Positions 21,360 through 46,415 of a DNA stretch of 64,000 nt are shown one piece after another. A model generated the notes under the pieces. It did not search any database, had not been told where the DNA came from, and saw only the letters and a program-made list of their open reading frames with translations. Every line of letters starts with the position of its first letter. The stretch's first letter is position 1. Origin of the DNA: Impatiens glandulifera (lineage: Eukaryota; Streptophyta; Magnoliopsida; Ericales; Balsaminaceae); assembly GCF_907164915.1 (NCBI RefSeq), contig NC_061866.1:27049905-27113904 (forward strand). The letters are read 5' to 3'. Position numbers and translations under genes: made by a program.

Positions 21360-21565
21360 GCATCTGTCGAATGTTGTTGCAGGTTGTCGAAGGTTGTCGC
21401 AGGCGAATATGCATCTGTCGCAGACGACTGTGCATCTGTCGCCTGTGACAGATGCACATTCGTCTGCGACAGATGCACATTCGTCTGCGACAGATGCACA
21501 TTCGTCTGCGATAGATGCACATTCGCCTGCGACAGATGCACATTCGCCTATGACAGATGCATTTT
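21360..21565. repeat. 21-bp CpG-containing array, left inverted repeat
   Basis: Units of the type GATGCACATTCGTCTGCGAC repeat about eight times, switching orientation near 21440-21450 so that the array itself forms a palindrome. An inverted copy is at 22995-23195. Several overlapping open frames on both strands here are by-products of the 21-base period and not genes. Confidence 0.92.
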
Positions 21566-21648
21566 TCGCCTGCGACCTTTTGGTTACTTGCTTGTTTGTA
21601 CGGAAAAATGTTAGTTTGCTTTTTGACATTGTGATTTACTTATCAGAT

Positions 21649-22281
21649 AACTCAGCACAACTGCACAAGTGGGCATGGCCCTTTATGCAATATGTTGATA
21701 TTGAAGGTCTTGGGTTGGATGACTACTATGAGTTAATGTACTTTTTTCTTTTTTGGTTTACATTTCTATTGATTTTAATGTTGGAAAGTGTGTATAGGTT
21801 ATTGACAGACCTATGACAGACCTACGACAGATGCATTTTTCGCCTGCAACCTTTTGGTTACTTGGTTGTTTGTACAAACAATGTTAGTTTGCTTTCTGAC
21901 ATTTTGATTTACTTATCAGATAACTCAGCACAAGTGGGCATGGCCCTTTATGCAGTATGTTGATATTGAAGGTCTTGGGTTGGATGACTACTATGAGTTA
22001 AGGTACTTTTTTCTTTTTTGGTTTACATTTCTATTGATTTTAATGTTGGAAAGTGTGTATAGGTTATTGACAGACCTATGTACTTCAGTACTATAAAGAA
22101 TCAAATGGAGGCCAAGGATGGAACTGGTTATAAGAATGTCCGTGACATTTTTGCTGATATGAGGCTAGTGTTCGACAATGCAATGCAGTATAACGATGAA
22201 AAGAGCGATGTTCATTTGATGGCGAAGACTTTGTCAGAAAAACAAAGACATTTTTACAATTGTTTAGAACATTCAAATTAA
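21649..22281 (+). pseudogene. GTE1/IMB1-type bromodomain gene fragment
   Basis: The exon at about 21917-21999 reads QITQHKWAWPFMQYVDIEG then LGLDDYYE. After a spacer of about 60 bases ending in TATAG, the exon at 22063-22281 reads VIDRPMYFSTIKNQMEAKDG, DIFADMRLVFDNAMQYNDE. This is a bromodomain with the WPF shelf and the acetyl-lysine-binding Asn (QYND), closest to plant GTE1/IMB1-like proteins. The first exon plus intron is duplicated just upstream (21649-21735) with an 8-bp insertion; the duplication period is about 273 bp. The donor site is unclear and the 3' part diverges (...SEKQRHFYN, stop at 22279), so only part of the domain is encoded. Retained introns show that genomic DNA, not mRNA, was captured. 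Confidence 0.85.
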
Positions 22282-22726
22282 GTGTCTTATAATAAATGAT
22301 ACATGGTGATAATTTAAATAATGATGAGAATGATTAAATCTTAGTACCCAACTCCAATTGATTGTTTTCAAATAAAACTCATTTTATGTACAAAACATCA
22401 ATAATATAAATATTTTGATTAATGATTATTAGATTGGACAGTAAATTATTAATTATCAATATCATGACATGTCTGATTGGTTTAAATGAAACTTAATTTT
22501 TCAACACATATATCAACAATTAAACATCATTTCTAGTAATCTGATATCAATAAAAATGGTTATGACAAAAAAAAAACTGCAACAACAAACACCACCACTC
22601 AGTGATGAAAATAAAACCCTTAAAATTCACAAACATATCAATCAATCAAAATCTCATTCTTTGGATTCAAATTTAGAATTGTTCCTCTTTTACCTAGCAT
22701 TTAAATCAAACTCACCCCTCATCACG

Positions 22727-22897
22727 TCAATCGTTTTGCCCATTATCAGTCTCCTCGTCGTTCAAAAAATCCTCTGAAGGTTCTCTCTGATCATCCCTTT
22801 GTGCATTCACCTCTCCACACACATTGTTATTATTACCCATTTCATTCGGGCTCACTCCATCCTCAACGCCCATTCTGTGTGCCCCAAAAACATTCAT
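22727..22897 (-). other. Small acidic open frame inside the Pack-MULE
   Basis: A 56-codon frame starts MNVFGAHRMGVEDGVSPNEM and ends ...EDFLNDEETDNGQND. Its acidic, Asn/Asp/Glu-rich composition looks coding-like, and it lies on the strand opposite to the bromodomain fragment. It could be a second captured exon or chance. No family is recognised. Confidence 0.3.
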
Positions 22898-22994
22898 ACG
22901 TACAAGCTAGTGAAGTGATGCTCATTCATGGATTATAGACATCAAAATAGACCAATAAGTAAAACAAAAAATGGAGATTGAGAGATACATATTG

Positions 22995-23195
22995 CAATCG
23001 TCGCAGACGAATATGCATCTGTCGTAGGCGAATGTGCATCTGTCGCAGACGAATGTGCATCTATCGCAGGAGAATGTGCATATGTCGCAGACGAATGTGC
23101 ATCTATCGCAGGCGACAGATGCACAGTCGTCTGCGACAGATGCATATTCGCCTGCGACAGCCTTCGACAACCTGCAACAGCCTTCGATAGATGCA
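22995..23195. repeat. 21-bp CpG-containing array, right inverted repeat
   Basis: Inverted counterpart of 21360-21565, with the same unit (GCATCTGTCGCAGACGAATG) and the same orientation switch near its inner side. Confidence 0.92.
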
Positions 23196-23701
23196 TTTTA
23201 AACCCAAAACGATTCAGTCAGCCAATAAACCTAAACCTAAACCTAAACAATAAACACTAAATCATTCTTCCATTTCAGCATGCATGAAATATAAACGATA
23301 GAAAACGGAAAAACTCGGATAGAAAACGGGAAAAACATGGAAGATAAAACCCTAAACTCACCTTCAATGGATAGGCGTTCTGCTTCTCGTCGGGGGCTCG
23401 TATTTGTCGTCGAGGGCTCGTCGGGGGTCGGGGGAGAGGAAGGGTTACATGGGTTTGGATCGTCGTCGGGGAGAGGGAGGGCTGGATCGGTCGTCTTCGG
23501 GGGAGGGGGAGAGTTGAAAAGAGAGAGAGGGAGGGAAAACAGGAGAAGGGAAGGAGAAAGTGATTTTTTTTTTAATTTAAGGACAAAAGAGACATTTTCC
23601 ATAGAGATAAAGTTATATTTGAAAAAATTAGGTTACCTATGCTAAGTTTGGAAATAACCCTATTAGGATGGTTATTTCATCAAATTTCCCATCATATATA
23701 T

Positions 23702-28581: not shown

Positions 28582-28590
28582 AAGGAGAAG
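28582..28590. repeat. Target-site duplication AAGGAGAAG, left copy
   Basis: AAGGAGAAG directly precedes the MULE end GGGAATTTGAG. The identical nine bases follow the other end at 37154-37162. Confidence 0.93.
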
Positions 28591-28699
28591 GGGAATTTGA
28601 GCAAATGACCCCAAAAAAGGGGCTAAATGCGTACGGTGCAGCGCTATAATTTTTATAGCGCTGGTGACCCCCAAAAAATTTTCTGCCGAAAATACCCCA

Positions 28700-29112
28700 A
28701 TTGCGTCACGCACCCTCCGGTTGCGTGACGCACCCTCCGGTTGCGTGACGCACCCGAGGGCATTGTGAAAAGTCCACAATGCCCTTACTATATAATTAAA
28801 AAATTTTCATTTCTTTTCATTTTTTTCTTTCTCCTTCTCTTTCTTCACTTCCCTTTCTCCTCTTCTCTCTAAAAAGGACAACCCCCGGTGGAATCTCAAC
28901 CACCGACGATCCCGACGAAGATGGTTGACAACGAAGGAGATGTCTTCTGCTACAGGTATTCTTCCTCCTTCCTTTATTTATCTCTTTCCACGCTTTGTTT
29001 GTTAGGGTATAGTGATTAGGGAATGAGTAGGTGGAATGCCACCGTTGCGGCGGAATCCGGGTGTGTAACGCAGTTGCGTCACGCAGTTGCGTCACGCAGA
29101 AGCGTTACGCAC
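28700..29112. repeat. GCGTGACGCA-type words near the MULE-A left end
   Basis: TTGCGTGACGCACCCTCCGG is repeated three times at 28700-28755, and TTGCGTCACGCAG with variants recurs at 29065-29112, inside intron 1 of the transposase gene. The core GCGTSACGCA is palindromic and contains two CpG sites. Confidence 0.9.
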
Positions 29113-31949
29113 CCCAGACCATTTATAACTATTACTTGCATTTCATTTTTTTAATACTATCAGTTACGGTGTCTCTCGATTGATACAATCATTTTTTCCA
29201 ATTGCAGCTGAAGTATTTGTTGACGTATTTGTTGTGTACAATGGAGAGTGGCAAATTGCAGCCAATGGTACCAGGTCTTTCTCTGCACAATCATGTAAAA
29301 CCATGGATATACCCCAATGTACTACATTTGCTGAATTAGTTGATATAATCTATGAGACGATTAACGTGCAAAAGTCTGCATATGATTTAGTGATTAAAGT
29401 CATGTATGATCCTTCTGCAAAACTTCCCCCTGTTGTTATTGAGGGAGATAAAGATGTGGGCATGTATTTATCACGGTTGATATCGGGTCGAAGTTCGTCA
29501 TCTTCGTCACCACTTTGTGTCTCATTAGTAGAGAAGTATCCAAGTCAAGATAGTACACTACCAATCATTACTCAAAAAACTATACCCGACGTTGTTTCTC
29601 GAGTTGTTTCTCAACATATTTTATTTGAAAGTGAAAATGAAGGAGGAGGAGAAGATGAACGGGCTCATCATGAACTGATTAATCATGAACGCGTTATTGA
29701 CTTTAATTATGAACGGGTTAGTGATTTCCAAGCTACTACTAGTCCTGCATCAGCAGTTGCACGCACGCCACACCGGTCAATACCTACACCAATGGGTACA
29801 CCATCTAGTGCAAGAGGGTCAATGGGTACACCATCTAGTGCAAGAGCGTCAATGGGTACACCATCTAGTACAAGACCATCAATGGGTACACCATCTAGTG
29901 CAAGACCATCAATGGGTACACCATCGACAGATCCGACAGACGTATCACCGACAGACCCTTCATTTGCATTGGCGTTAACTAGTGAAACCGTATTGGAAGT
30001 CGGTACGTTATTTGATACTAAAAAAGAACTTCAACTGACGCTATATAAATATGCGATGACTTATCATTTTGAATTCAAAGTGAAAAAGTCTCGAAAACAT
30101 CTTTGGTATGTGAAATGTATGGATGAGACATGCAAGTGGAGCTTACGTGCTGTGAAAGGTAAGTTTTCCGAGATGTTTGTGATTCGGAAATTCAATCGAC
30201 AACACTCATGCTCAGTTTTGTCGAGGCCGGAAAAAAAAAATGCAAACACCGGCATGGGTTATTGGGCAGTGCATGAAGGGTAAGTACATGGACCATCACC
30301 ATAACCACTTGCCTAAAAAAATAATTGAAGACATGCAGTCAGCTTATGAGATGTTTTTGACTTATAATAAGGCTTGGAGGGCAAGGGAAACGGCTTTAAC
30401 GGCGGTGCGAGGAACGATAGAGGATTCCTATGGAAAATTGCCTTCATACCTATACATGTTGGAGAAGAATAATCCGGGTACCATAACAGATATTCAGACA
30501 GACGAGCACGGCCACTTCAAGTATATGTTCATGTCTCTAGGCTTCTTAATTAGGGGTTTCAAAGCCTTCTGTCGTCCCGTATTGTGTGTTGATGCAAGTT
30601 TTCTCAAGCACAAGGTGGGAGGTCAACTATTGGTGGTTGTTGCATTGGATGCCAATGAGCAACTGTATCCTGTTGCATTCGGCGTTGTTGATTTAGAGAA
30701 TAATAACTCGTGGACTTATTTTATGCAAAAACTTAGAGAAGCAATTGGATTAGATGATGATCTCGTCTTCGTATCCGATAGACACCCAAGCATAGCCAAT
30801 GCCTTGTGTGCTATTTTTCCAGAAGCAGACCACGGTGCGTGCACATATCACATAAAGATGAATATTAATGCCAAATTCAAAACTGATAATTGTCATGTCG
30901 AGTTTGATTTGGCTTCTCATGCGTACACTATCCCCCAATTTAATCGATTTTTTGACAAGATCAGGGTTAAAGATCATAGGATTGCTGCCTATTTAGAAGA
31001 AATTGGGTTTCAAAGATGGAGTAGAGCATATTTCCCCGGTAAGCGATACAATCAACTCACAAGCAATTATGCAGAGAGTTTGAATAGTCAGTGCAGGGAA
31101 GCCAGAAAGTATCCAATTTCAGCAATGCTTGAGTCTTTAAGAACAACATTACAAGGGTGGTTTAATGATAGAAGAGAAAAAGCGTCCAACCACCAAATTT
31201 TTTTATCTCCAACGTATGAAAAGTTATTATGTGATGGTTTTGAGAAAGCAAGATTCTATACCGTATCATCCCTTAACCGATTTAAGTTGTATGTGCATGA
31301 TAATGAGGCACATTTTAAAGTCAATTTGAAGGACAAGGACTGCACTTGTAGGGTATTTGAAGTCTCCGGTCTTCCTTGTACACATGCACTGGCTGTTGCC
31401 CGTCACAGGAATGTGGTTCCTTACGACTTATGCTCAAGGTATTTAATCGTTTTGAACCTATCTATATGCTCAAGGTATTTTTAATCGTTTTATTTTCCTT
31501 CTCATAGGTATTATACAACTGTATCTTGGTTGAATGCATATGCAGAGACATGTTATCCGGTTGGTGATGAAGAGAATTGGGATCTTCCCGATATTATCAA
31601 ACAACGCGTGTGTCTAAAACCACCTGTGAAGGTTAAGAAAGGTCGGCCACAAACTAAACGTAGGACATCCCAAGGTGAGGTCCGTAAGGTCCCGAGACGA
31701 TGCAGTTCATGTGCAAGACTAGGACATAATAGAGCAACATGCAAAGCAGTGATGCCTGCACCGTCTACCGCAAGAGCAAGAGCATCATCTCAGCAGCATG
31801 AGCCCTCATCATCTCAACAGCATGTGCCCTCATCATCTCAGCAGAATGAGTCATCATCTCAACTGTACGAGCCCTCATCATCTCAGCTCTACGAGCCATC
31901 ATCTCAACTGTACGAGCCATCATCTCAATCTTACGAGCCATTAGCTTAG
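28940..31949 (+). CDS. MURA-type MULE transposase (one homopolymer frameshift)
   Basis: Three exons: 28940-28955 (MSSAT), 29208-31438 and 31508-31949, with GT-AG introns; about 895 residues. In order: a PB1-like N-terminal region (DVFVVYNGEW); a Ser/Thr-rich linker with five GTPSS-type repeats; a MuDR domain (LEVGTLFDTKKELQLTLYKY ... CKWSLR); the MULE catalytic core (PVLCVDASFLK with the first Asp, FVSDRHPSI with the second, CTYHIKMN, and the downstream region expected to hold the Glu); a SWIM finger (CTCRVFEVSGLPCTHALA); and a C-terminal CCHC knuckle (CSSCARLGHNRATC). It would cut and join the element ends. The frame shifts at an A10 run (30231-30240); one A fewer would restore it, so this may be a mutation or a base-calling error. 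The start is set by the splice that joins MSSATA to EVFVDV. Confidence 0.9.
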
Positions 31950-31959
31950 AATGAACTTC

Positions 31960-32500
31960 TTAGTGTTGTGTTGTGGTGTTAATGTTGTTTTTGTAGACTT
32001 ATTACCAAGTCAAGTCTTGTGTGGAGGTGTTAATGTTGTTTTTGTAGACTTATTACCAAGTCAAGTCTTATGTGGAGGTGTTAATGTTGTTTTTTGTAGA
32101 CTTATTATCAAGTAAAGTGTATTATATCAAGAATGTTGTCTCCTGAAATGTTTTCTGGTGTTTTTGTAGTCAATGTTGTTTTCTGGTGAATGTAATACAG
32201 AGACAGGGTGCAATCGGATAACTGCTAAAGTTTTTGATTGCGTCAAGCAGTGTTAATGTTGTTTTTTGTAGACTTATTATCAAGTAAAGTGTATTGTATC
32301 AAGAATGTTGTCTCCTGAAATGTTTTCTGGTGTTTTTGTAGTCAATGTTGTTTTTTGGTGAATGTAATACAGGGACAGGGTGCAATCGGATAACTGCTAA
32401 AGTTTTTGATTGCGTCAAGCAGCTGCGTGACGCAACTGCGTGAAGCAATTGCGTGACGCAACTGCGTGACGCAACTGCGTGACGAAACTGTGTAACATTT
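31960..32500. repeat. Nested duplications and motif array after the transposase gene
   Basis: A unit of about 50 bp (GGTGTTAATGTTG, TAGACTTATTACCAAGTCAA) occurs three times at 31970-32100. A larger unit of about 190 bp is present twice (about 32065-32250 and 32250-32420; for example ATGTTGTCTCCTGAAATG in both). The block ends in an array of CTGCGTGACGCAA-type words (32408-32490). This is the gap between the two convergent genes. Confidence 0.85.
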
Positions 32501-32702
32501 TACAATAGTGCAGAACCTATTACATTAGACATGCTTTATATAACTGTGTACTTAAGGCATTATTAAAATAATTGGTGCACAACCTATTACAATAACATAT
32601 ATAACATTAACAACGTTTGATATCATTAAATCAACCATATTACAAAGGTTTGAGATTAACATTACAAAAATTTGATATCAGTACAAAAGTTTCATAAATA
32701 AC

Positions 32703-35700
32703 CTATGGATCTACAAGTCCATGAAATAACCTCACTACCCACTTTTCTCTCCAAGCTTTCATCTCATTTGAGGTCACTTCTGCTAGATTCAGGTTTGCAG
32801 TCAAGTACTCAATATACATTAGTACAAAGACACCACAATCTCCACTCTTAGTTGCTTTAGGAACTTCTGACTCTGGAAGTCTTGTGTATGGCAAAACGGA
32901 ATCAGGGTTGAGCAGAGGAAATCTTTGTTTATCTTCAAGAGGCAATGCCTTGTCAAATATAACCGGAATCATTTCGCACATCGGTAGCACAAACTCATCA
33001 AGATTAGCATAACATCCAGGATCGCAGTCATATACGTCTACGCGCCATTGTTGTAGACGGACAACACAAAGTATCCAGTGGACATCTTTGATGTTCAAAG
33101 GAATATATATATGATCGCATTCTTTCCAACTATTCCTAAAGTTGTTTTCATTGCCGAAGAAGTATTCGAAAAAGTTTTCAATGTCAAACTCAATACGACT
33201 TTTCTTAAACTCAGGGTAATCAGCAGTGAACCTAGTGTGGAGCCAACAATCTCTAATAAAGAAGTTCTTCTTATATGTCTTTGGATATAGCCAAGGTCTT
33301 CTTCTCAGAATGAAGCAACCTGCATCGATTTCCTACACGAGAGAAAAACATTTAAAATACAATCTGCAAATCTAAAATTATTCTAACATGAATATTACTT
33401 ACATCATCATTCAGCCAAGTGAACCTTTTTAGCAATCGGCAAAATAATGCCTTATCACCTAACGTAGTATGGAGCTCAATTTTTGTGTTGTCAGTTGTTG
33501 GATCTTTAAGCCATGTTTGCAATTGATGAAGAAGTTGATCGTCATATTTTAGAAGTGGATTGACGGTGATAGGATCTTTTAACTTGGGCTGTTTCAGATT
33601 AGGGTCGGTGAAATCTGGATCATACTTCGGCCTCCTATTCCTTCTCGTGACCAATATGACTTTCTTAGGAAGAGGAGGAAGAGTATTCATTATTTTCAGT
33701 TCATCTTCATCATTTTCGTCTTTTTTCTTCCCCACCTTCTTCTGAAAAGTCTTTTGTATAGTCTTTCTCTTCACTGGCTTCTCCACTTCTTCTTTCTTCT
33801 CCCCTTCTTCTCCAATCTCCACTTCTTCTTTCTTCTCCCCTTCTTCTTCAATCTCCACTTCTTCTTTCTTCTCCCCTTCTTCAATCTCCACTTCTTCTTT
33901 CTCATTCTCAACAACTGCCTCTTGAAGAATGTTCTCTATCGGCGGATCCTCAACAACATTCTCATTCTCGACAACAGCCTCATGAAGAATGTTCTCTATC
34001 GGCGGATCCTCAACAACATTCTCATTCTCGACAACAGCCTCATGAAGAATGTTCTCTATCGGCAGATCATTCTCATTCTCAATCTTCTTCTGCTCCAATT
34101 CAACATTATCCTGCAAAATGGCTCCATTATTAACCTTCTCATTCTCCTTTTGCTCCTCTTCTTCATCGAGAATGTCATTCAGACCAATGACATTCTCCTC
34201 TTCTTCGTCACGAATGTCATTCTCCTTTTCTTCCTCTTCTTCGTCACGAATGTCATTCAGACCGATGTCATTCTCCTTCTGCTCCTGCTACAAAAGTGAA
34301 AAGAATTTATATTCAGGATGCGTCAAGCAGCGGCGTCAAGACATAAAGTAGTAAAAAACAGAAAGCTCTAACAGAATTACCTGGTTGGTGACATGGCTGG
34401 CGAACTGGTTGCTTAGACTGAGAATCATCTTTTCAAACCGAATAAAGTAGTTTTGTTGATTCAATTTGATGTCTCTTATGTCTCTCTTGATTTCTTCGAC
34501 ATCTTTCTTTATCTCTTCGACATCCTTCTTTAACAATTCGGCATCCTTTATCTGAACATGAGATGCCGGTGCCGGTTCACGTGCAGGTGATGATGGAGGT
34601 GTTGAAGTTGCGGATGAGGGACTCATGTTACGCAGGCTACGACGCTTGATGGCTGCTTTGCTGGGGGGGATATATCATCATATTCAACCTTCCTCTTCCT
34701 CTTGGAAGGTTGGACAGTAGTAGGTTCTTCATCAACATCTTCATCATCATCATCTTCATCAACATCTTCATTAGCCTTTCTCTTTTTTCCCCCATCAGTA
34801 ACTCCCTCAAACAAATCATCGAATGAATTGTTAATGTGTTCAAAATCCTCCCCACTGTACAAACTCATCTCCTTGGAGGACTCTTCCATCTTAGAAAACA
34901 CAGCGCTATTAAAGGCAGATTGTACCTCCTGAAATGTATTCTTCCTTTTGGATTGATACAACAGTATCCTTGGGCGAAAAGGGCCATCAACGTCTTTCCT
35001 TGTGGCGAATTTAGGGACCAAGATTTGAATGATCTCATAGCTCCACACTTGTAGTGCTAGTACAAACCCATACACGTTATAAGCAAAAGAATTAGTAACT
35101 CCACTCCCTTTCTTGGACATATATACAGACATGTGGTGTTTCATGTCCTGGTCAAGACCCCTCATGGTGAATCTAAAGGACACCTTCCCCCATGGAAATC
35201 GGAGGAAATCTTCAACATCTTCAACCATATGGATGATTTTGAGATTTAAAATCCGTTTTGGGTCATATGAGAAGAGGTACTAGTTAATCAAGCAGATCAG
35301 CCCGATCTTCCATGCGTCTTCCTTATCGGTGCATTTCATGAAAATAGATTCCAAATCCATCATTCGAATTGACGTATTCCTTTTGAAATATTTTATCAGC
35401 AAGGGTGGACAACCTCGGCATTCATCTTTGTATATAGGCAATCTGTCGAAGTTGAGGCCTGTAATCAATGCGTACTCTTTCAGACCAAAAGTATATTCCT
35501 CCCCATTAAAGTTGACAATCATCCTATTCAAATTGGCCTTCACCTTCCGAAGCAGCAACTGATGTAAAATGGTCCATGAGAACAACAAGTCTGGGACTCC
35601 TTTCAATAAATACTGAAATTGGGAATTTAGAGCCCTCTCCATAAGACCCAACGCTTCAAACCTACCAGATACTTTTTTCAAGGCTAGGACAGATTTCAAT

Positions 35701-35741
35701 GAAATCCTACCAGGAAAATCATAAACCGTGAAGTCTGCCAT
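32703..35741 (-). pseudogene. DUF1985-coiled coil-C48 (Ulp1) protease gene of MULE-A, VANC-like
   Basis: Exons on the minus strand: 35741-34381, 34287-33403 and 33332-32703, joined by canonical GT-AG introns, about 958 codons. Exon 1 encodes a DUF1985-like domain (YDFPGRISLKS, ILHQLLLRKV, ALITGLNFDRLP, DFLRFPWGKVSF, YGFVLALQVWSYE), then an acidic/basic linker and a heptad coiled coil (KKDVEEIKKDVEEIKRDI). Exon 2 is Glu-rich repeats. Exon 3 is a C48 protease with His (VHWILCV), Asp (DVYDCD) and Cys (SGDCGVFVLMY) in place. Lesions: an in-frame TAG at 35280-35282, where the MULE-B homologue has Gln, and a 1-bp shift at a C7/G7 run (34663-34669). In Arabidopsis VANDAL MULEs, DUF1985 proteins (VANC) counter silencing; that role here is inferred. 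Confidence 0.85.
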
Positions 35742-35852
35742 CTACAAAAGGGAAAACAAAAACAACAATGTTTGTGAAAACCTTTCACAACAAATATAAA
35801 CAAATGAGAATAAAAGCAACCGTCAAAATAGCTAGAAACAACTGTCAACTAC

Positions 35853-35942
35853 GTTACGCAGCCTGCGTGACGCAACTGCGTGACGTAACTGCGTGACACA
35901 ACTGCGTCATGAAACTGAGTGACGCAACCGCAAGACGCAACC
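35853..35942. repeat. GCGTGACGCA-type array upstream of the VANC-like gene
   Basis: Six or more words of the type CTGCGTGACGCAA follow each other just upstream (minus-strand sense) of the first recognised exon of the DUF1985 gene, with point variants (CGTGACGTAA, CGTGACACAA, GCAAGACGCAA). Confidence 0.88.
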
Positions 35943-36240
35943 CAACCCATAAACCGTGCATGAACCATTTGAAATCAAGAAGCATCCTACCCTAAACCCT
36001 AACATAAAACATGCATGAACCATTTGAAAGCAAGAAGAAACCTACCCTAAACCCTAACATAAACCATGCATGAACCATTTGAAATCAGGAAGCAACCCTA
36101 AAACCCTAACATAAAACATGCATGAACCATTTGCAAGCATGAAGCAACCCTAAACCCTAACATAAACCATGAATGAACCATTTGCAAACAAGAAGCAATC
36201 AACCCTAAAACCTAACATGAACATAAATCAATGAATGAAC
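35943..36240. repeat. Five 57-bp repeats containing telo-boxes
   Basis: Units CATGCATGAACCATTTGAAA followed by CAAGAAGCA and CCCTAAACCCTAACATAAA repeat about five times. Each carries a plant telo-box (AAACCCTAA or its near variant), an element common in promoters of plant growth and translation genes. Position suggests the leader or promoter of the minus-strand VANC-like gene. Confidence 0.88.
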
Positions 36241-36429
36241 GAACCATAACATAAACCAACATAACTAAAACTAACCTGATGAAGTCAATGAATGAACGAG
36301 AAGATGAAGACGAGCAGGAAGAGACGTCGAGGCAGGTGCGTCGTCGAGGTAGGTGCGTCGTCGGGTGCGAGAGAGAGAGCATGAATAATGGTCGAGGCTT
36401 ATTTGGGTTTTTATATAAAATAAAAATAA

Positions 36430-36620
36430 ATGTGACGCATCGTATCCTACTTGACGCATCCTACTTGACGCATCCGAGTTGACGCATCCGAGTTGACGCA
36501 TCCTAGTTGACGCATCCGAGATGACGCATCCATGTTGACGCATCCGAGATGACGCATCCATCTGGACGCATCCATCTTGACGCATCCTACGTGACGCATC
36601 CTACGTGACGCATCCTACCA
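36430..36620. repeat. TGACGCATCC array in MULE-A
   Basis: About fifteen copies of a 12-16 bp word, TTGACGCATCC with variants (GTGACGCATCCTAC), lie between the presumed VANC-like promoter and the right inverted repeat. The word shares TGACGCA with the GCGTGACGCA arrays elsewhere in this element. Confidence 0.9.
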
Positions 36621-36699
36621 AACAAACAACCTGCATTCAACGAATCAGCGAATCAATGAGGAACGTTCTGTAAGGAAATATACACGAACTGAATAAGAA

Positions 36700-36845
36700 A
36701 TCGAAACAAACAATAACGAAATAAACACAAAATATAGTGGAATGGTCGAATGAAATGTCAATTTGTTCGAAATCCTTAGCGTTGTGCAAACTCGTCTCCG
36801 TTGGAAGTTCTTCGCAGCTATAGGCCATTGAATATGGTGCCATGG
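36700..36845 (-). pseudogene. Duplicated internal fragment of the VANC-like protein
   Basis: The minus-strand reading EELPTETSLHNAKDFEQIDI then SFD parallels the exon-1 segment EESSKEMSLYSGEDFEHINN then SFD of the same element (near 34820-34890), sharing E-E, S-L, D-F-E, I and S-F-D at the same spacing. It looks like an old partial duplication or a remnant of a related element near the right inverted repeat. Confidence 0.4.
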
Positions 36846-37153
36846 TCGACGGTGCCTTTTTGATTCGTTCTTCAGCGCTGAAAAAGAAGAGAAAGTCTTC
36901 TCCGCCACCATTAGGGTTCACGGCGGAGCGGAGAAGACGGGGAAGAAAGGGGCTGGATGAGAGAGAAAATGAATCGAAAATGAAAAAAAATTAAGTCTTT
37001 ATAGGGTTTAGGGTGCGTCACGCATCTGGAGGGTGCATGACGCTTGTGTATAATGGTCATTAAAAAGTTTGGGGGTCACCAGCGCTATAAAAATTATCCC
37101 CCCGCACCATCGGCTATTTGACCCCTTTTTAGGGTCATTTCCTCAAATTTCCC

Positions 37154-37162
37154 AAGGAGAAG
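37154..37162. repeat. Target-site duplication AAGGAGAAG, right copy
   Basis: Identical to 28582-28590 and directly adjacent to the right end ...AAATTTCCC of MULE-A. Only 13 bases separate it from the left end of the next MULE. Confidence 0.93.
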
Positions 37163-37689
37163 GGGCTGAAAAATTGAGAAATTTGATAATATAACCCTAA
37201 AAAGAATGGAATTTTGATTTTTAACCTTAATAATAAACTTTATGATTTTTAACATTTTTTTTAAAATTTTTCCAATTTTACCCTTAATAACCTTTTTATT
37301 TTTTACATTTTTTTTCTTTTTTTTTTCTTTTCTTTTCCTTCCTTTCCCTCTCTCCCCTCATTCACCGGTTGGTCCCCCACCCACATGCCCATTTCCCAAA
37401 CTCCCACCCAATTACCTTTCTCTTCTTCCTTTCCACCGCGACCCCACCACCCTCCCTTCCCCCAACTGCCAGCCACTAAAGTCCGAGGGAGACCCAACTG
37501 CCACCGCCGCCACCGCCAACGACATAGCTCCGCGACGATACCTGAGACCCAACTAAGACCCTACAACGAGACCAACCGACCAACATCTAAATGGGTACGT
37601 TCATTTCTATCAATCTCATTTCATTCACGTTGAAATGCTGTCAAAATGTTACGGTTGAAATGCTGGGAAATGTTACGTAAACGAAATGC

Positions 37690-38000
37690 TGTCAAAATCG
37701 GTCCCCACGCCCCACGCTCAACCCCCACGCCCCACGCCCAACCCCCACGCCCCACGCCCACGCCCCACGCCCCACGCCCAGCCCCCACGCCCCACGCCCA
37801 ACCCCACGCCCCACGCCCACTACCCACGCCCACGCCCCACGCCCAAGACCCACGCCCACTCCCCATGCCCCACGCCCAAGACCCACACCCCACGCCCCAC
37901 GCCCCACGCCTAAGTCTTACGCCCCTCACCCACGCCCCACGCCCACGCCCCACGCCCAAGCCCACGCCCCCACGACCCACACCGAAGCCCAACGATCCAT
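37690..38000. repeat. CCCCACGCCCA array 1 of MULE-B
   Basis: Dense repeats of CCCACGCCCCACGCCCAACC with small length variants, in the 5' region before the transposase exon. The complementary strand has many runs of three to five G and could form G-quadruplexes. Open frames here (Pro/His/Arg or Gly/Trp-rich) are repeat artefacts. Confidence 0.95.
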
Positions 38001-38129
38001 TTATGGTAGGTTTTGTTTACTATACTAACATCTAAATGGGTACGTTCATTTCTATCATTCTCATTTCATTCACGTTGAAATACTGTCAAAATGTTACGGT
38101 TGAAATGCTACGTAAACGAAATGCTGTCA

Positions 38130-38400
38130 AAATCGGTCCTCACGCCCCACGCCCAATCTCCAACCCCCAACCCCCACGCCCCATGCCTAACCCCACGCCC
38201 ACGCCCCACGCCCAACCCCCACGCCTCACGCCCACTCCCCACGCCCCACGCCCCACGCCCACTACCCACGCCCCACGCCCACTCCCCACGCCCCACGCCC
38301 AACCCCACGCCCCACGCCCAAGTCTCACGCCCCTTGCCCAAGACCCACGCCCAACCCCCACGCCCAAGCCCCACGCCCCACGCCCAAGCCCCACGATCCA
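38130..38400. repeat. CCCCACGCCCA array 2 of MULE-B
   Basis: Same word and same orientation as array 1. The flanking 100 bases (TGTCAAAATGTTACGGTTGA and TTTATGGTAGGTTTTGTTTA) are also shared, so arrays 1 and 2 arose by duplication of a block of about 410 bp (start of block 1 near 37595, of block 2 near 38040). Confidence 0.95.
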
Positions 38401-38453
38401 TTTATGGTAGGTTTTGTTTACTACACTAACATTTAAATTTCTATCAATTGCAG

Positions 38454-40624
38454 ATTCCAATTTATATGTTAGCTGTTTTGTCCTATATGATGGTGAGTGG
38501 CTGAAAGATGATGAAAGTGTTAGTTCTTTTGAAGCAAATTCTTTAATAGGTGTGCATCTATCCTGAAATACTACATATGAAGAATTAACTGAAATCGTCT
38601 ATGATGCTATTCGTGTGGACAAAGTGAGATATGATTTAGTGTTGAAAGTGAAGTATAATTGTCTTTTTAAAAGAGCTCCTCCTGCTGTTATCCGATGTGA
38701 TAAAGATGTGATGTTCTATGTGCAACATATTTCGACTTCACACCAAGAGCAAAACACTCCTCTTTGTGTATCTTTACTAGAGAAGTCATAACCTTCACAC
38801 CCAACGGATGAAATCCAAAGAGAGGAGGTTCCTGAATTTGAGCATGAAGATCCACTCCCCCAAAATGACATACACAATGCAGTAAATGAAGAACAACAAA
38901 TCCCATTTCTTCATCCGAGTGAATCGGTTGATAGTACCCCCCTTTTGAACCCAAGCCAGCCACTTCCCCTATGAGAAAAACATCCATCAATGTTGAGGAA
39001 CCAATCCCGGTTGAAACACATGCTCAATTAACCCTTGAAAACGGATTGGAAGTGGGTACGTTTTATGAGAACAAAAAAGAACTTCAATTGAGGGTGCATA
39101 GATATGCGATGGCTAATCATTTTGAATTCAAAATTGAAAAGTCAACAAAAGTTCTTTGGTTTGTGAAATGTGTGAATGAGAATTGCAAGTGGAGGTTGCG
39201 TACCTGTTCATGTTGGCGAAGAATAACCCAAGTACCATAATTGACATTCAGACGGATGAGCATGGCCATTTCAGATATATGTTCATGTCTCTAGGCTGCT
39301 CAATCAGAGGTTTCAGGTATTGTCGTCCAGTATTGTCCGTCGATGCCAGTTTTCTTAAACACAAGATTGGAGGTCAATTATTGATTGCGATTGCATTGAA
39401 TGCGAATGAACAACTATTTCCCGTTGCTTTTGGCGTCATTGATTCGGAGAATAATAACTCTTGGACATATTTCATACAACAATTAAGAGTGGCAATTGGA
39501 TTAGTCCCGGATCTCGTCTTCGTATCTGATAGACACCCAAGTATTGCCAATGCTTTGTCCGCTGTTTTTCCAAAAGCACATCACGCGGCATGCACATACC
39601 ACATCAAAATGAATATTATGGCCAAATTCAAAACCGATAACTGCCACGATGAGTTTGATATGGCTTCACGCGCATATATAGTGCCAAAGTTTCATCAACA
39701 TTTTGACAAGATCAAGACCAAGGACCCTCGTATTGCTGCCTATCTGGAAGAGATAGGAGTGGAGAGATGGAGTCGTGCATTTTTTCCTGGTTTTCGATAC
39801 AATCAAATGACAAGCAATTACGCTGAGAGTTTTAATAGTCAGTGCAGAAATGCTAGGAAATATCCCATATCAATATTGGCTGAGTATTTACGAATCACAC
39901 TACAAGAATGGTTTAATGATAGAAGAGAAAAAGCTTCTAACCACACAGAACATTTATCTCAATATTATGAAAAGTTCTTACGTGAACAAGCCGAGAAGGC
40001 CAGATTCTACAAAGTTAATCCGCTTAACAGATTCGAGTTTCATGTGAATGACGGTCAACATGATTTTCAAGTTGATCTCCAAACTCGAACTTGTACTTGT
40101 AGGGTATTTGATCTATCTGGTCTTCCTTGTAAACATGCTCTTGCTGCTGCCCGTTCTCGGAAAATTATTCCATATGAGTACTGCTCAAGGTTAGAAAATT
40201 ATTGCATTGATAAATTCTAAGATTGAATTTATATAACTTAAATATTATTATTTTTTTCAGGTTTTTCACAACTGAAGCGTGGTGCATGGAATATGTATAT
40301 ACATGTTATCCAGTTTGCGATGAAGGTTCTTGGGATATTCCAGAAAATATCAAGGAACGAGTTTGTCTAAAACCCCCCATCAAGGTTAAGAAGGGTATGC
40401 CAACAACAAAGTGTAGGCCATCACAAGGTGAGCCTCGTAAGGAACAGAGACGGTGCAACTCATGTGGCGGTCGATGCCATAACAGGGCAACATGCAAAGC
40501 AGTGATGCCTGCACCATCTACTTCAAGACAACAAGTGTCAACACCTTCACAACCGTCACAGTTGGCCCAACCTTCACAATCTTCATCTTTGCCACATTCT
40601 CTAGACAATATTTCTTTTAGTTAA
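38454..40624 (+). pseudogene. MURA-type transposase of MULE-B, damaged
   Basis: Exons 38454-40189 and 40261-40624 with a GT-AG intron at the same site as in MULE-A, just after the SWIM finger. Recognisable parts: N-terminal VSCFVLYDGEW, MuDR domain (LEVGTFYENKKELQLRVHRY), catalytic core (PVLSVDASFLK, FVSDRHPSI, CTYHIKMN), SWIM finger (CTCRVFDLSGLPCKHALA) and knuckle (CNSCGGRCHNRATC). Lesions: in-frame stops at 38564-38566 and 38789-38791, a frameshift before 38971, and a deletion near 39200 that removes about 100 residues between CKWRLR and YLFMLAKNN. From 39207 on, the frame is open for over 300 codons. It cannot make a full transposase. Confidence 0.88.
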
Positions 40625-40849
40625 ATTGTATCTTTTTATTAAATTGTATGTTTTTGCACCAACTAAATCAGTGACTATTCCACATGATGTTTTATATATA
40701 TATGTAGGTGGTAGTTTTGTCCAGGTGGTATATGTGCATGTGCCTTTTTTATATATGTGCAAGTGCCTTTTTTTCTGTTGTAACAGATCTGATGTGTAGG
40801 TGCCCAAAGGCAATAAGTGGTCATCATGTTCAGGAATTCAAGGGGGTTG

Positions 40850-41140
40850 GGCGTGGGGAGTGGGCCTTGGGAGTGGGCCTTTGGGCGTGGGGCGTAGGCC
40901 TTTGGGCGTGGGGCGTGGGCCTTTGGGCGTGGGGCGTGGGCCTTTGGGCGTGGTGGTGGGCGTGGGCCTTTAAGCGTGGGGCGTGGGCCTTTGGGCATGG
41001 GGAGTGGGCGTGAGCGTGGGGCGTGGGCCTTTGGGCGTGGGGCGTGGGGCGTGGGCGTGGGGGTTAGGCATGGGGCGTGGGGGTTGAGCGTGGGGCGTGG
41101 GGGTTGGGCGTGGTGCGTGGGCCTTTGGGCGTTGGGCTTT
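40850..41140. repeat. GGGCGTGGGG array 3 of MULE-B
   Basis: GGGCCTTTGGGCGTGGGGCG repeats in the gap between the two convergent genes. On the plus strand this array is G-rich, opposite to arrays 1, 2 and 6. Confidence 0.95.
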
Positions 41141-41934
41141 ACATATTATTACTTGAATTAATTTAAGGTTTTGTTATACATATTATTACTGGAAAATCTC
41201 AGTCATTTGAATCTAACAAAGACAACAATAATTAACTAATTTTAGAATGAAATTTGAAGCAAACAAATTAACTATTTATATTGAATTTAGATCAATGGTC
41301 TACAATTTGATGGAATAACCTTACTGCCCATTTGTTTCTCCAAAAATTCATATTTTTAGTGACCACATTTGATATATCCAATGAGGTAGTAAGGTATTCC
41401 AAATGCATAATAGTAAAAACACCACAGTCCCCACTTTTGGTTGTCTTTGGGACTATTGGGTGTGGTATTATGGAATATGGCATCGCATCCAATTTGATCT
41501 GTGGAAACCTTTGTTTATCGCCCGTGGTGCACCCCTGTTCAAGCAAGTACGGCACCATTACACACATCCTTTCGGAACATATTCTGTTCGCAGTCATATA
41601 CATATATGCACCAATCTTGTAGATGAATCTTGCACAGGACCCAGTGCTTCTGCTTTAGGTTCAAGGGTACATATATCATATCAACAATATTCCAAGGATT
41701 ACTTCCTTCACCAAATACGTATTCCATGAGATCGTCGAATTCGTAGCCTGCAGGATTCGGGGTAAACATATCATAGCGATTATTAATCTTCTGAGAGAAT
41801 TTGGAGTCAGCAATTGAGAAATTTCTTGGATATGTCTTAGGAAACTCCTCAACCCATTGTTTCAGTAGATGACAGATTTCATCTATCTCCTGCGAAAAAA
41901 ATTATTGATTAAGAAAAATTATTAGGCCTAGAAC

Positions 41935-42165
41935 GTGGGCGTGAGGGTTGAGCGTGGGGCGTGGGGCTTGGGCGTGGGGGTTGAGCGTGGGGCGTGGGGG
42001 TTGGGCGTGGGGGTTGGGCGTGGGGTGTGGGGCGTGGGTAGTGGGCGTTGGGGGGTGGGGAGTTGAGCGTGGGGCTTGGGCTTGGGGCGTGGGGGTTGAG
42101 CGTGGGGCGTGGGGGTTGGGCATGGGGAGTAGGCGTGGGGCGTGGGGGTTGGGCGTGGAGCTTAC
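41935..42165. repeat. GGGCGTGGGG array 4 of MULE-B
   Basis: G-rich on the plus strand, inside the intron before the C48 protease exon. MULE-A has a plain 70-bp intron at the homologous position. Confidence 0.95.
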
Positions 42166-42734
42166 AAAAATAAAGAACAAAAATACTTACCGTATCGTGT
42201 AACCATTGTTGAGGCTTGAGCAATCTGTTGAATAAAGAACGATCTGCAGAGCAACCCGTCAACTCCTTGAAATCCTTTGCATCACTCTTTAACCATTTCT
42301 TCAACTCCTTCATCTTTTCCTCGTCAATTCGTAACAAAGGATTAACCTTAACCGGATCATTTAGTTTAAACCCTTTTTCACCAGGGTCGGTGTATTCCTC
42401 CAATTGTTTCGACTTCTTCTTTCTCTGAAAATTTTTACCAACAAATTGTGATGGAGTCAATTATTTCACCTCCTTCTCCTTCTACTTATTCTTCTCCTTC
42501 TTCTTCTTCTCCTCCTCAGTCTCCACAATCACCTCCTTCACAATCTCTTTTTCAACCTCCTCTTTCTTCTCCTTTGGAACATGGGGCAAATCTTCTTCTT
42601 GCACAATCAAAAAATTAGATTAATATACATTGTGGAATGTAGGGCGTGGGACTTGGTGCAATACCTTGTCATTCTTCTCAGCTTTGTTCTCCTCCTCCAA
42701 CACATCTTTCTCCTTATTCTTATCTTCATCCACA

Positions 42735-43000
42735 TCCTCCACCTCCTTCTCCTTCTCCACCTCCACCTCCACCTCCTTCTCCTTCTCCTTCTCCTTCTCC
42801 TTCTCCTTCTCCTTCTCCTTCTCCTTCTCCTTCTCCTTCTCCTTCTCCTTCTCCTTCTCCTTCTCCTTCTCCTTCTCCTTCTCCTTCTCCTTCTCCTTCT
42901 CCACCTCCACCTCCACCTCCACCTCCTTCTCCTTCTCCACCTCCACCTCCACCTCCACCTCCACCTCCACCTCCTTCTCCTTGTTCTCCCCCACCTCCTT
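42735..43000. repeat. (CTTCTC)n / (CCTCCA)n coding microsatellite
   Basis: About 22 copies of CTTCTC flanked by CCTCCA repeats. On the minus strand it codes for (Lys-Glu)n and (Val-Glu)n within the acidic linker of the VANC-like protein, matching the Glu-rich repeats of MULE-A in kind. Plus-strand Ser/Phe, Pro/Ser and Leu-rich frames are artefacts. Confidence 0.92.
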
Positions 43001-43404
43001 CTCCTTGTTCTCCTCCACCTCCTTATTCTCCACCACCTCCTTGTTCTCATGCACATCATCATTCTTCTCCTCTGGGCCATCAAAAATCAATTTGCGAGAG
43101 GTTTTTGGCGTGGGGCGCGAATCATCATTCTGCACAATGAAAAAATCAGATTAATATATATACATTGTGGAACGTGGGGATTCGCACGTTCTATACCATA
43201 CCTTGTCATTCTCCTTAGTCTTCTCGTCATTCTCCTCAGTCTCCTCGTCCTCCTCCCTAGTCTCCTCGTCCTCCTCCTCAGTCTCCTCGTCCTCCTCCTC
43301 AGTCTCCTCGTCCTTCTCCAAAGTCTCCTCCTCCTCAATCTCCTCGTCCTCCTCCTCATCGTTCTGCAAAATCAAAAATGAAATGAGATTAATATACATT
43401 TTGA

Positions 43405-43700
43405 GATCTTGGGCGTGGGGCGTGGGGGTTGGGCGTGGGGTGTGGGGGTTGGGCGTGAGGCGTGGGGGTTGGGCGTGGGGCGTGAGGGTTGGGCGTGGGG
43501 GTTGGGCGTGGGGGTTGGGCGTGGGGGTTGAGCGTGGGGCGTGGGGCTTGGGCGTGGGGCGTGGGGGGTGGGCGTGGGGCTTGGGCGTAGGGCTTGGGCG
43601 TGGGGCTTGGGCGTTAGGATTTGGGTTTGGGCTTGGGCGTGGGGCGTGGGGCTTGGGCGTGGGGCTTGGGGCTTGGGCGTGGGGCGTGAGACTTAAGCGT
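43405..43700. repeat. GGGCGTGGGG array 5 of MULE-B
   Basis: GGGCGTGGGGGTT and GGCTTGGGCGTGGGG units, G-rich on the plus strand, in the intron between the coiled-coil segment and the small Glu-rich exon. Confidence 0.95.
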
Positions 43701-45494
43701 GTGGGTGTGTACTTTTTTCGAATTCCTCTTCTCAGCTTTCCTCTTCTTGGCCAACTTATCAGCATTCATCTTCTTGGCCAACTCATCAGCAATCCTCTGC
43801 TTGGACAAAATCGCCAGCCTCTCTCGCCTCTCATTCCTCTCATTCATCTTTCTTGTAATCTCATCATCACCCTCCTTCCTCTCCTTCCTCTCATTCTTCT
43901 TCATCTTCTCGTCATTCTTCCTCTTAGAGTTCATCAACTCATCATTCTTCCTCTTCGTCCTATTCTCATTATCAACATCATCATTCTTCCTCTTCGTCCT
44001 ATTCTCAACAAGTGCAAGATCATTATTCTTCCTCTTTGTCGTCCTCTTCTGAGTATCAATTGCAGCAGTACCTGCCTCTTCCTTTTCTTCTCCTCCACCA
44101 TTCTTTTGTTCATTTCTTTGCCCCAATAATGTAATTATAAGTTGTTGATTCTCCTTCATGAGCCTGATTTCACTTTTAATCTCATTCACATCCTTTTTAA
44201 TCTCATTCACAACATTTGTCAGCACACATCAAGTTTGGCAGTTAAGTCTTGAGACACTCGATTTGGTGCACAAGATGTAGATTTGTCTTCAGTTGGAATA
44301 GGAGTCGTCGCAGAAGGGATTGAATGAGAGGAGCTTTCTTGGCTAGTTTCATCACTAACTTCAGGGACCTTGGGACTAATATGTCTACTCTTCTTGGTCG
44401 GCGGTTTGGGAGTCCTTTCATGTTTTTCTTCTTCTTCAAAAACTTCAATCTTTCTCTTCCTCGTATCACATCCAAAGAATTCATCATAAATGTTGTCTGT
44501 CATATCTTCAAAGTCGTCCCCAGAGTACATCCGCTTCGCCTCCGCAGACTCATGAATTTTTCTTCGAATAGTGCACTCCTGGATGACTGTGGATACCTCA
44601 GGTCCGGTATAACTCCTAAAAGATTTATAGAGCACTATCCTTGGGCTTGTAAGATCATCTTCCAGTGTCTTTTCAGCAAAATTGGGGACGAATGTATCGA
44701 TAAGCTCATAGGTCCACACTTGGAATGCTAGTGCGAACCCATGTAAAGTATAAGCGACATCACATATGCCTTTCTTGTTCCAGTTTTTCTTCTTCGAGAG
44801 ATATAACCCACAGAGGTATTTGATATCTTTGTCAATACCCTGCAGGGTAGCTCTGAAGGACACCTTTCCCCATGGAAATTGGAGGAACATCTCCATGTCT
44901 TCCACCATGTGAAAGATTCTCAAACTTATCTTCCTCCTGTTATCAGATGCGAACAGATACTGGTAAATGAGAAATATGAGCCCCATCTTCCATGAATCCT
45001 CCTTATCAGAGCATCCGACGAAAATGTCTTCAAGCTCTTTCAGTCTAACATCCTTTTTACCCTTAAAATATTTGAGGACAAGGGGTGGACATTCTTCAAC
45101 CTCCTCCACCAAAGGAAATCTGCCAAAGTTGAGGCCTATCACCAATGCATAATCCTTCATGCCCCAGCAGACCTCCTTACCTTTGACCAAGAACCTTATC
45201 TCCTTCGAATTTGAACTGACTTTTTTGATAAGCATCTGATGGAGTATGGTTCCTGAAAATAATAATGTCGGGGCTTGGAATATAGACTTGAATTGGGTCT
45301 GTAAAGCCCTATCCAAAAGATCATGGTGAGTAAACTTCTCATTTATCTTTGCCAAGCTGGGACCAGTGGATTTCCATGAAACACGGCCATTAAAATCATT
45401 GAGAATGGTTTCTTTGGTGCCATCTGTAAAAACAGTCATTAAAATCATATACACAATGTTTGGTTGATCAAAAACAATAAAATCATATTAATAA

Positions 45495-45815
45495 TTGCAG
45501 CCACGCACCACCCACACGCCCCACGCCCAAGCCCCACGCCCAACCCCCACTTCCAACGCCCAACCCCCACGCCCAAGCCCCACGCCCCACGCCCCACGCC
45601 CCACGCCCAAGCCCCACGCCCCACGCCCAACCCCCACTCCCAACGCCCAACCCCCACGCCCAGACCCCACGCTCCACGCCCAACCCCCACGCCCCACGTC
45701 CAAGCCCTACGCCCCACACCCACGCCCCACGCCCAACCCCCACGCCTCACGCCCACCTTCCACGCCCCACGCCCAACCCCCACGCCCAATCCCTACGCCC
45801 TACACCCAACCCCAA
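45495..45815. repeat. CCCCACGCCCA array 6 of MULE-B
   Basis: Same word, now C-rich on the plus strand, just upstream of the DUF1985 exon and thus in the leader, intron 1 or promoter of the minus-strand gene. It is followed by CCCTAAAACCCT telomere-like sequence at 45825-45840. Confidence 0.95.
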
Positions 45816-46415
45816 ACCTAAACTAAAACCCTAAAACCCTGATGTTCACATGCAAAGCAAATATACCATTCTCAGCATTCATAATAATCAAAACATGCAA
45901 ACCAAATATTCACAAACCATTCACAAACATTTTCAGCATTTCAAACTATATCAATCTCAGCATTTAAAACAATAAACCTAAACTAAACTAAGATTACCTA
46001 AACAATAAACCTAAACAATAAACTTAAACTAACCTCAGATCGTCGGGCTAGAATCGTCCGAGGTTTGGCGATCGTCGAAGATGTTGGTTGGAAGTTCGGC
46101 TTGGCGATCGACGAAGAGGCTGGCTGGAAGGGTTGGGCTTCTTGGCGAACATCGGCGGAGTTTGGCGTCGGAGAAACGGAAGGGAAACGGAACCGGATGG
46201 AGGAGAAAGGGGGGAAGAAGAATGAGAGTGTAACGGTCGGGGGAAAGGGGAAGAAGAAAAGAAAAGGAAGAAAAAAAAGGGGGAAAAAAAAAGTAAAAAA
46301 GTTATTGAGGTTAAAATTGGAATTTTTTTTTAAAAAATGTTAAAAAACAAAAAATTTATTATGGAGGTTAAATATCAATTTTTTTTTTTTTTTTTATTAT
46401 ATTATCAAATTTCCC

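What the first reader, a model, noticed from the sequence alone, without database searches (positions are those of the whole stretch)
28591..46415. Two adjacent MULEs with the same two-gene plan but different private DNA words: a candidate motif-specific anti-silencing system
MULE-A and MULE-B have homologous transposases and homologous DUF1985-coiled coil-C48 proteins. Each is filled with its own short CpG-containing word: GCGTGACGCA/TGACGCATCC in A, GGGCGTGGGG/CCCACGCCCAA in B. In both, the word is found only in non-coding DNA and at matching places: 5' of or inside transposase intron 1, the gap between the convergent genes, the leader of the DUF1985 gene, and (in B) its introns. This is what is known for Arabidopsis VANDAL MULEs, where VANC proteins (DUF1985 family) bind family-specific repeated motifs and remove silencing only from their own family. 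Finding it in TIR-bearing MULEs whose VANC-like protein keeps a C48 protease triad would extend that system. The protein-motif link is inference.
Basis: partly seen in the sequence, partly recalled or inferred. Interest (0 to 1): 0.88.

Follow-up and report, generated by a model that had tools for sequence, protein, structure and literature searches.

The report
Transposons with private anti-silencing address words
In a balsam genome, related jumping genes each carry a relative of a plant protein known to lift DNA silencing, plus their own repeated DNA word placed outside the genes, which suggests that each family may switch on only its own members.

Summary
Two adjacent TIR-bearing MULEs of Impatiens glandulifera (A 28591-37153, B 37176-46415) have homologous convergent genes (transposase; DUF1985-C48) and different CpG-containing words; 27 of 27 A words and 102 of 104 B words inside the elements lie outside my exon models.

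Related copies extend it. DUF1985 relatives carry a third word (C, CATCTGTCGCA, 21-bp unit) and a fourth (D, AGTACTTAACGAAGCG, 19-bp unit); a B subclade has a variant. The word-by-locus table is close to diagonal, with exceptions. A C-type element without a seen transposase, not in the finding, lies at about 20784-23690. DUF1985 of all four families has VANC21 as best or only PDB match (E 5e-8 to 2e-7).

In all six different-word pairs synonymous divergence is higher in DUF1985 than in the transposase (intervals apart in two); same-word pairs agree. So the word appears to follow the DUF1985 gene.

Best reading: a VANC-type motif-specific anti-silencing system. Ulp1/C48-bearing VANCs are already known; long TIRs, CpG words, convergent or alternating arrays and several channels in one genome are the variant features. 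Binding and demethylation are inferred. Both window copies have a broken second gene.

The parts
28582..28590 (.). A: left target-site duplication AAGGAGAAG (its partner is 37154-37162)
28591..28740 (.). A: left TIR, partner 37004-37153
   Evidence: 76% over 150 bp; terminal motif shared with other copies
28702..28752 (.). A words in or beside the left TIR, 5' of the transposase
29075..29094 (.). A words 5' of the first transposase coding exon
29300..31949 (+). A: transposase gene (exon model; PF03108, PF10551, SWIM)
32239..32473 (.). A words in the gap between the convergent genes
32706..33332 (-). A: C48 exon; His, Asp and Cys of the triad present
33352..34287 (-). A: Glu-rich linker open frame
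   Evidence: 60-bp repeats
34319..34325 (-). A word between linker and DUF1985 frames (inferred intron)
34336..35741 (-). A: DUF1985 exon, interrupted by one in-frame stop in this copy
35868..35926 (.). A words (13-bp unit) in the DUF1985 leader
36433..36612 (+). A words (14-bp unit TGACGCATCC) in the DUF1985 leader
37014..37020 (-). A word in the right TIR
37176..37305 (.). B: left TIR, partner 46286-46415; no duplication found
   Evidence: 78% over 130 bp
37704..38385 (+). B words, two blocks (37704-37969, 38146-38385), CCCACGCCC on +, 5' of the transposase
38567..40624 (+). B: transposase gene (exon model)
40849..41101 (-). B words in the gap between the convergent genes
41292..41901 (-). 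B: C48 region, frame broken in this copy
41957..42146 (-). B words between C48 and linker frames (inferred intron)
42182..43366 (-). B: linker and Glu-rich repeat frames; two lone words at 42643 and 43107
43411..43683 (-). B words between Glu-rich and DUF1985 frames (inferred intron)
43713..45415 (-). B: DUF1985 exon with coiled-coil tail
   Evidence: VANC21 match
45520..45787 (+). B words in the DUF1985 leader
20784..23690 (.). C-type element with MULE ends; C words ATCTGTCGC at 21413-21537 and 23038-23141 in convergent halves; no transposase seen
   Evidence: left end approximate

Best explanation
These are VANC-type, motif-specific anti-silencing systems carried by TIR-bearing MULEs. Each element family encodes a DUF1985 protein whose DNA-binding domain recognises that family's own short word. 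The word is repeated in tandem in the leader of its own gene, between its exons, in the gap between the genes and, in A, B and C, beside the transposase. Bound in bulk, the protein lifts DNA methylation from copies bearing the word, including copies without genes, and leaves other families silent. Protein and word diverge together, so each family keeps a private channel. Shown by sequence: homology to VANC21, private arrays in conserved non-coding places, word identity tracking DUF1985 rather than transposase divergence. Inferred: binding, demethylation, and any role of the C48 protease (possibly SUMO removal at the bound array).
For: DUF1985 of A, B, C and D each match VANC21 (PDB 9lnj) as best or only PDB hit, E 2.2e-7, 1.4e-7, 5.4e-8, 2.2e-7; profile 6.4e-14. 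Word-by-locus table nearly diagonal over 29 loci. Genome-wide word counts 174, 830 and 2714 against controls 0, 0 and 1. Same array places in the four families. Leader arrays minus and first inter-exon arrays plus in 12 of 12 B-type copies. At about 88% transposase identity to A, L031 (DUF1985 77%) keeps the A word while D (55-56%) has another. Synonymous divergence is higher in DUF1985 than in transposase in 6 of 6 different-word pairs (intervals apart for A-D and A-C, touching for B-C), and equal in 3 of 3 same-word pairs. Gene-poor copies carry the word of their family: the element at 20784-23690 and the word loci L001, L006 and L007, which match A mainly at its ends (only 3 kb seen). Published precedent: VANC21 and VANC6 bind their own tandem motifs in non-coding DNA and demethylate their own families (PMC5735166, parts 1-3 of 6 read).
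Against: No binding or methylation data. Four of 16 fetched B-clade loci have 0-1 B words (L017, L021, L022, L024), L017 without any substitute found; L033 has none of the four words. The one D copy read to its end has no transposase-side array. Both window copies have a broken second gene. Helical spacing fits only C. C and D arrays are not in one orientation, unlike the published case. Descent alone makes word and protein correlate; the dS contrast rests on few copies, several of them with stops, and trees are broadly congruent. A scores under Pfam's DUF1985 cut-off.
Confidence: 0.75

Rival explanations
1. The words are binding sites of the transposase or a transposase partner, like the subterminal motifs bound by En/Spm TnpA or the TIR sites of MURA, and serve transposition or transposase-driven demethylation.
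For: Both TnpA and MURA are reported to cause hypomethylation of their elements (PMC10398659 passage). Some words lie in or beside the TIRs (A 28702-28752, 37014).
Against: Many arrays are internal, between DUF1985 exons and in the 3' gap. D and A transposases are 85-89% identical, but their words are unrelated, while L031 at 87-88% shares the A word. The D copy has no transposase-side array.
Confidence: 0.12
2. The words are by-products of slippage: minisatellites that arose once in each family's non-coding DNA and were inherited, with no protein reading them.
For: Arrays are tandem, grow and shrink between copies (B words 17-186 per locus), and non-coding DNA tolerates such growth. L017, L021, L022 and L024 lack the B word.
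Against: The same word occurs in several separate arrays per element at conserved places and in fixed orientation in 12 of 12 B-type copies; slippage alone would give different units at different places. Unit length varies within B (7/13/20 bp) while the word stays.
Confidence: 0.1
3. The arrays are read by host transcription factors and act as element promoters or enhancers.
For: Arrays lie in the leaders of both genes in A, B and C. CCCACGCCC resembles zinc-finger sites (recalled, no call).
Against: Four unrelated words in four sister families of one genome would need four different host proteins; arrays also lie between exons and in the 3' gap.
Confidence: 0.03

Closest known systems
VANC21 / VANC6 of Arabidopsis VANDAL21 / VANDAL6 (Hosaka 2017, PMC5735166)
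   Same: MULE with a transposase and a DUF1985 protein; short motif repeated in tandem in non-coding parts (introns, intergenic, terminal); motif differs between related families; DUF1985 sequence homology.
   Different: Published motifs YAGTATTAY and AGTTGTCC/AC contain no CpG, all words here do; published motifs run in one orientation, here C and D arrays are convergent or alternating; VANDAL TIRs are described as degenerate (PMC10398659 passage), here about 130-150 bp at 76-78%. Binding is shown there, not here.
KIU / Kaonashi: Ulp1-bearing VANC genes (Sasaki 2022, not held; seen through PMC13317346 passages)
   Same: VANC-type gene with a C48/Ulp1 domain; reported family-specific motif and hypomethylation; the review places the Ulp1 capture near the monocot-eudicot split.
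   Different: Described there as non-TIR MULEs; here TIR-bearing. Whether these genes belong to the KIU clade was not tested.
MULEs with Ulp1 domains in grapevine, melon and rice (PMC2528002 passages)
   Same: Mutator-like elements with an Ulp1-like region, in either orientation to the transposase.
   Different: The passages seen mention no private word arrays.
MURA of MuDR and TnpA of En/Spm (PMC10398659 passage)
   Same: Element-encoded protein lowers methylation of element sequences.
   Different: Acts through the transposase or TnpA; no DUF1985 partner.

Membership tests
VANC-type anti-silencing system | DUF1985 protein homologous to VANC21 | tested here: met
   A, B, C, D match 9lnj, E 5.4e-8 to 2.2e-7; profile 6.4e-14
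VANC-type anti-silencing system | Carried by a MULE with its own transposase | tested here: met
   not every fetched copy retains both genes
VANC-type anti-silencing system | Family-private motif in tandem in non-coding parts | tested here: met
   D-word genome count not obtained
VANC-type anti-silencing system | Motif arrayed in one orientation | tested here: inconclusive
   B: yes (one mixed array, in L018); A: mostly; C and D: no
VANC-type anti-silencing system | Protein binds its own motif | not testable with these tools
   needs EMSA or DAP-seq
VANC-type anti-silencing system | Expression demethylates own family only | not testable with these tools
   needs transgene and bisulfite data
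VANDAL MULEs | Absent or degenerate TIRs | tested here: not met
   A 76% over 150 bp, B 78% over 130 bp. PMC6446971 (passage) notes TIRs in some elements of the VANDAL clade, so the feature is not absolute
VANDAL MULEs | Transposase in the VANDAL clade | not tested
   no VANDAL transposase was at hand
KIU / Ulp1-bearing VANC | C48 domain with catalytic triad on the DUF1985 gene | tested here: met
   His and Cys in 8 of 8, Asp in 6 of 8 aligned (Asn in L026 and L023); P0001 bears both Pfam domains
KIU / Ulp1-bearing VANC | Common descent with KIU genes | not tested
   no KIU sequence was at hand

The most novel reading that the evidence does not exclude
One plant genome holds at least four parallel anti-silencing channels in which a DUF1985-C48 gene and its word arrays travel together as one specificity cassette, while transposases are exchanged between families. 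Because each word contains a CpG that could be methylated, recognition may itself read methylation, making each channel a self-sustaining on/off switch.
Probability: 0.25. Interest if true: 0.82.

Novelty: new variant of a known kind. Interest (0 to 1): 0.62.

Why it matters
The VANC-motif pairs whose tests I read come from Arabidopsis. Here one genome offers four natural protein-word pairs at graded distances, with intermediates (L020-L024, L031, L032), so the question of how protein and target change together could be tested by swapping domains and words. The system also sits on elements with clear TIRs, whereas the published discussion ties VANC genes to degenerate TIRs (PMC10398659 passage).

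Tried and rejected
Helical periodicity (a feature I recall from Sasaki 2022, not read): spacing fits 10.5 bp only in family C (21-bp unit, period 10.6), and a 21-bp tandem unit gives that by itself. A (13/14 bp) and B (7/13/20 bp, period 6.6) do not fit. Not used as support.

G-quadruplex or R-loop reading of the G-rich B word: the G-rich strand is sense in the DUF1985 leader but antisense between its exons (orientations, read by eye), so I saw no rule by transcription strand. Set aside, not tested.

B words as coding repeats: open frames run through the arrays, on both strands and in several frames, and the conserved exons lack the word except for two lone cases. Rejected.

Target duplication for B: none found in the window copy; L011 has TATACATA (8 bp) at both ends. 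My automatic TIR alignment over whole flanks gave long AT-rich matches and was discarded for terminal motifs.

CpG decay: arrays keep CpG (observed/expected 0.96-1.52) against 0.29-0.49 in DUF1985 coding, but transposase coding has 0.68-0.84 and the first 28 kb of the window 0.84, so this does not separate selection from recent growth or low methylation.

Paper searches: their listings showed no account of these elements in Impatiens and none of CpG-containing VANC words; the library lacks most subscription journals, and Sasaki 2022 is not held.

So word-specific residues could not be mapped on the DNA-binding face. Further clades (such as P0018) were not searched.
Full report
WHAT IS THERE. 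The window lies in a 654-Mb plant genome (G000, C5 27049905-27113904). Of 19 protein matches 15 are named Impatiens glandulifera, with contig lengths equal to those of G000. MULE-A spans 28591-37153 with TIRs of 76% over 150 bp and the 9-bp duplication AAGGAGAAG; MULE-B spans 37176-46415 with TIRs of 78% over 130 bp and no duplication found. Each has a rightward transposase and a leftward DUF1985-C48 gene. In A, Pfam finds DUF1985 in two fragments below its curated cut-off; in B well above. The A DUF1985 exon has an in-frame stop and the B C48 frame is broken in these copies; open DUF1985 frames exist elsewhere.

THE WORDS. TGACGCA occurs 28 times (2.85 expected) and CCCACGCCC 98 times (0.06 expected); 27 of 28 lie in MULE-A and 98 of 98 in MULE-B. 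Inside the elements 27 of 27 A words and 102 of 104 B words (8-mer) lie outside my exon models, which rest on homology and open frames without transcripts.

GENOME-WIDE. The A 13-mer has 174 matches against 0 for the pattern read backwards, the B 15-mer 830 against 0, the C 12-mer 2714 against 1. The D count did not complete. Reading backwards turns CpG into GpC, and tandem growth makes counts non-independent, so these are contrasts, not probabilities. The 8 A loci and 6 B loci cut out around word matches all overlap own-family sequence; they are the first places listed, some overlap each other, and L036 matches only weakly (best 117 bp). Of 100 B-word places listed, 67 lie within 12 kb of a listed DUF1985 match (0.5% expected) and 33 do not.

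RELATED COPIES. I picked 20 of the 102 DUF1985 places and 7 of the 150 to span identity, so the sample is not random. Word counts per locus: A words 23, 25 and 22 in MULE-A, L029 and L030; 4 and 6 in the relatives L031 and L032. B words 17-186 in 12 of 16 fetched B-clade loci and 0-1 in four (L017, L021, L022, L024). C words 15-32 in 4 of 4 C loci. D words 38 and 43 in 2 of 2 D loci. L033 has none of the four. Off-diagonal: L028 has 2 A words, beside an A-type transposase; L017 has 5 C words inside a separate small TIR element; L032 has 1 D word. L021 and L022 have a leader unit of their own (AATTGAATTGCGTGGTACGC) and with L024 form a DUF1985 subclade (FastTree support 0.977; the B clade as a whole has only 0.325). 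So the B word drifts along the DUF1985 tree.

SAME PLACES. In A, B, C and D arrays lie in the DUF1985 leader, between the DUF1985 and C48 exons, and in the gap between the genes. A, B and C also have one beside the transposase (for B in the window copy and 6 of 12 B-type copies; for C seen in L026); the D copy read to its end (L035 with L042) has none. In 12 of 12 B-type copies the leader array is minus and the first inter-exon array plus in DUF1985 orientation, counting arrays of 3 words or more; one array in L018 is mixed. C arrays mostly run as plus then minus halves; D words alternate. So the published one-orientation rule holds for B and mostly for A only.

WHICH GENE DOES THE WORD FOLLOW? 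At 87-88% transposase identity to A, L031 (DUF1985 75-77%) keeps the A word; D, at 85-89% (DUF1985 55-56%), has another. Synonymous divergence, transposase then DUF1985 then C48: A-D 0.37 (95% 0.28-0.49), 0.94 (0.70-1.35), 1.90; B-C 0.54 (0.38-0.73), 0.99 (0.73-1.36), 1.07; A-C 0.75 (0.57-1.00), 1.89 (1.27-3.00), 2.20; C-D 0.92, 1.63, saturated; B-D 1.01, 1.42, 2.05; A-B 1.03, 1.22, 2.63. DUF1985 is higher in 6 of 6 different-word pairs; intervals are apart for A-D and A-C, touch for B-C and overlap in the rest, and values above 1 are near saturation. Same-word pairs agree: B-L023 0.23, 0.25, 0.32; B-L016 0.08, 0.07, 0.11; A-L031 0.20, 0.18 (N-terminal piece only), with C48 0.43. The 5' part of the transposase gene is more divergent for A-D (67% identity, dS 0.48). 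I read this as exchange or conversion of transposase genes between families while each DUF1985 gene kept its word. Topologies are broadly congruent, so the claim rests on depth, on one copy per family, some with stops.

HOMOLOGY TO VANC. DUF1985 of the four families has VANC21 (PDB 9lnj, 9lnk) as best or only PDB match, E 5.4e-8 to 2.2e-7; the profile gives 6.4e-14 over positions 67-328. A VANC21 crystal structure was announced in a 2021 meeting report (PMC8756742 passage). The C48 triad is complete in 6 of 8 aligned sequences; L026 and L023 have Asn for Asp.

CPG. All the words contain CpG. Arrays keep it (observed/expected 0.96-1.52), against 0.29-0.49 in DUF1985 coding and 0.68-0.84 in transposase coding. 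Recent slippage, selection or low methylation would each explain it. B words do show CpG transitions (80 of 809 single-step neighbours; 871 intact).

MECHANISM. The most likely account is the one shown for VANC21 and VANC6 (PMC5735166, parts 1-3 of 6 read): a DUF1985 protein binds dense own-word arrays and lifts methylation from its family. Binding and demethylation are inferred here. The C48 role is unknown; Ulp1-bearing VANCs (KIU) are on record (PMC13317346 passages, citing Sasaki 2022, which I could not read), so C48 is not new.

NEW OR KNOWN. It works like a VANC system, and its DUF1985 protein is a VANC relative. I do not file the elements as VANDALs: degenerate TIRs were tested and not met, and the transposase clade was not tested; TIRs are noted in some VANDAL-clade elements (PMC6446971 passage), which tempers that difference. 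The variant features are long TIRs, CpG in the words, convergent or alternating arrays in C and D, and several channels with intermediates in one genome.

Noticed in passing
window 20784-23690: A third MULE-type element with C-family ends (67-74% to L026 over the termini) and C words in two convergent arrays; one 159-aa open frame, no transposase seen. It was not run against Pfam, and its target duplication is unclear.
   Followed up: partly
window 35280-35282 and about 41540-41650: The second gene is broken in both window copies: an in-frame stop in A's DUF1985 exon, a frame break in B's C48.
   Followed up: partly
window 33352-34287 and 42620-43366: Glu-rich coding tandem repeats (60-bp units in A, 9/12-bp in B) between DUF1985 and C48, recalling the repeat-rich variable regions reported for VANC proteins.
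   Followed up: no
L025-L028: C arrays are mostly built as a run of plus words followed by a run of minus words, a convergent, hairpin-like layout that might also feed small-RNA production.
   Followed up: no
L021 959-1081 and L022 910-1030: A 20-bp leader unit (AATTGAATTGCGTGGTACGC) in a B subclade that has lost the B word: a possible word in transition.
   Followed up: partly
window 34623-35279 (-): This DUF1985 stretch also matches the Plant mobile domain profile PF10536 weakly (E 7e-5, below its cut-off); P0002 carries both Pfam labels.
   Followed up: no
window 29790-29939: 30-bp coding repeat (about four copies) in the 5' part of A's transposase gene.
   Followed up: no
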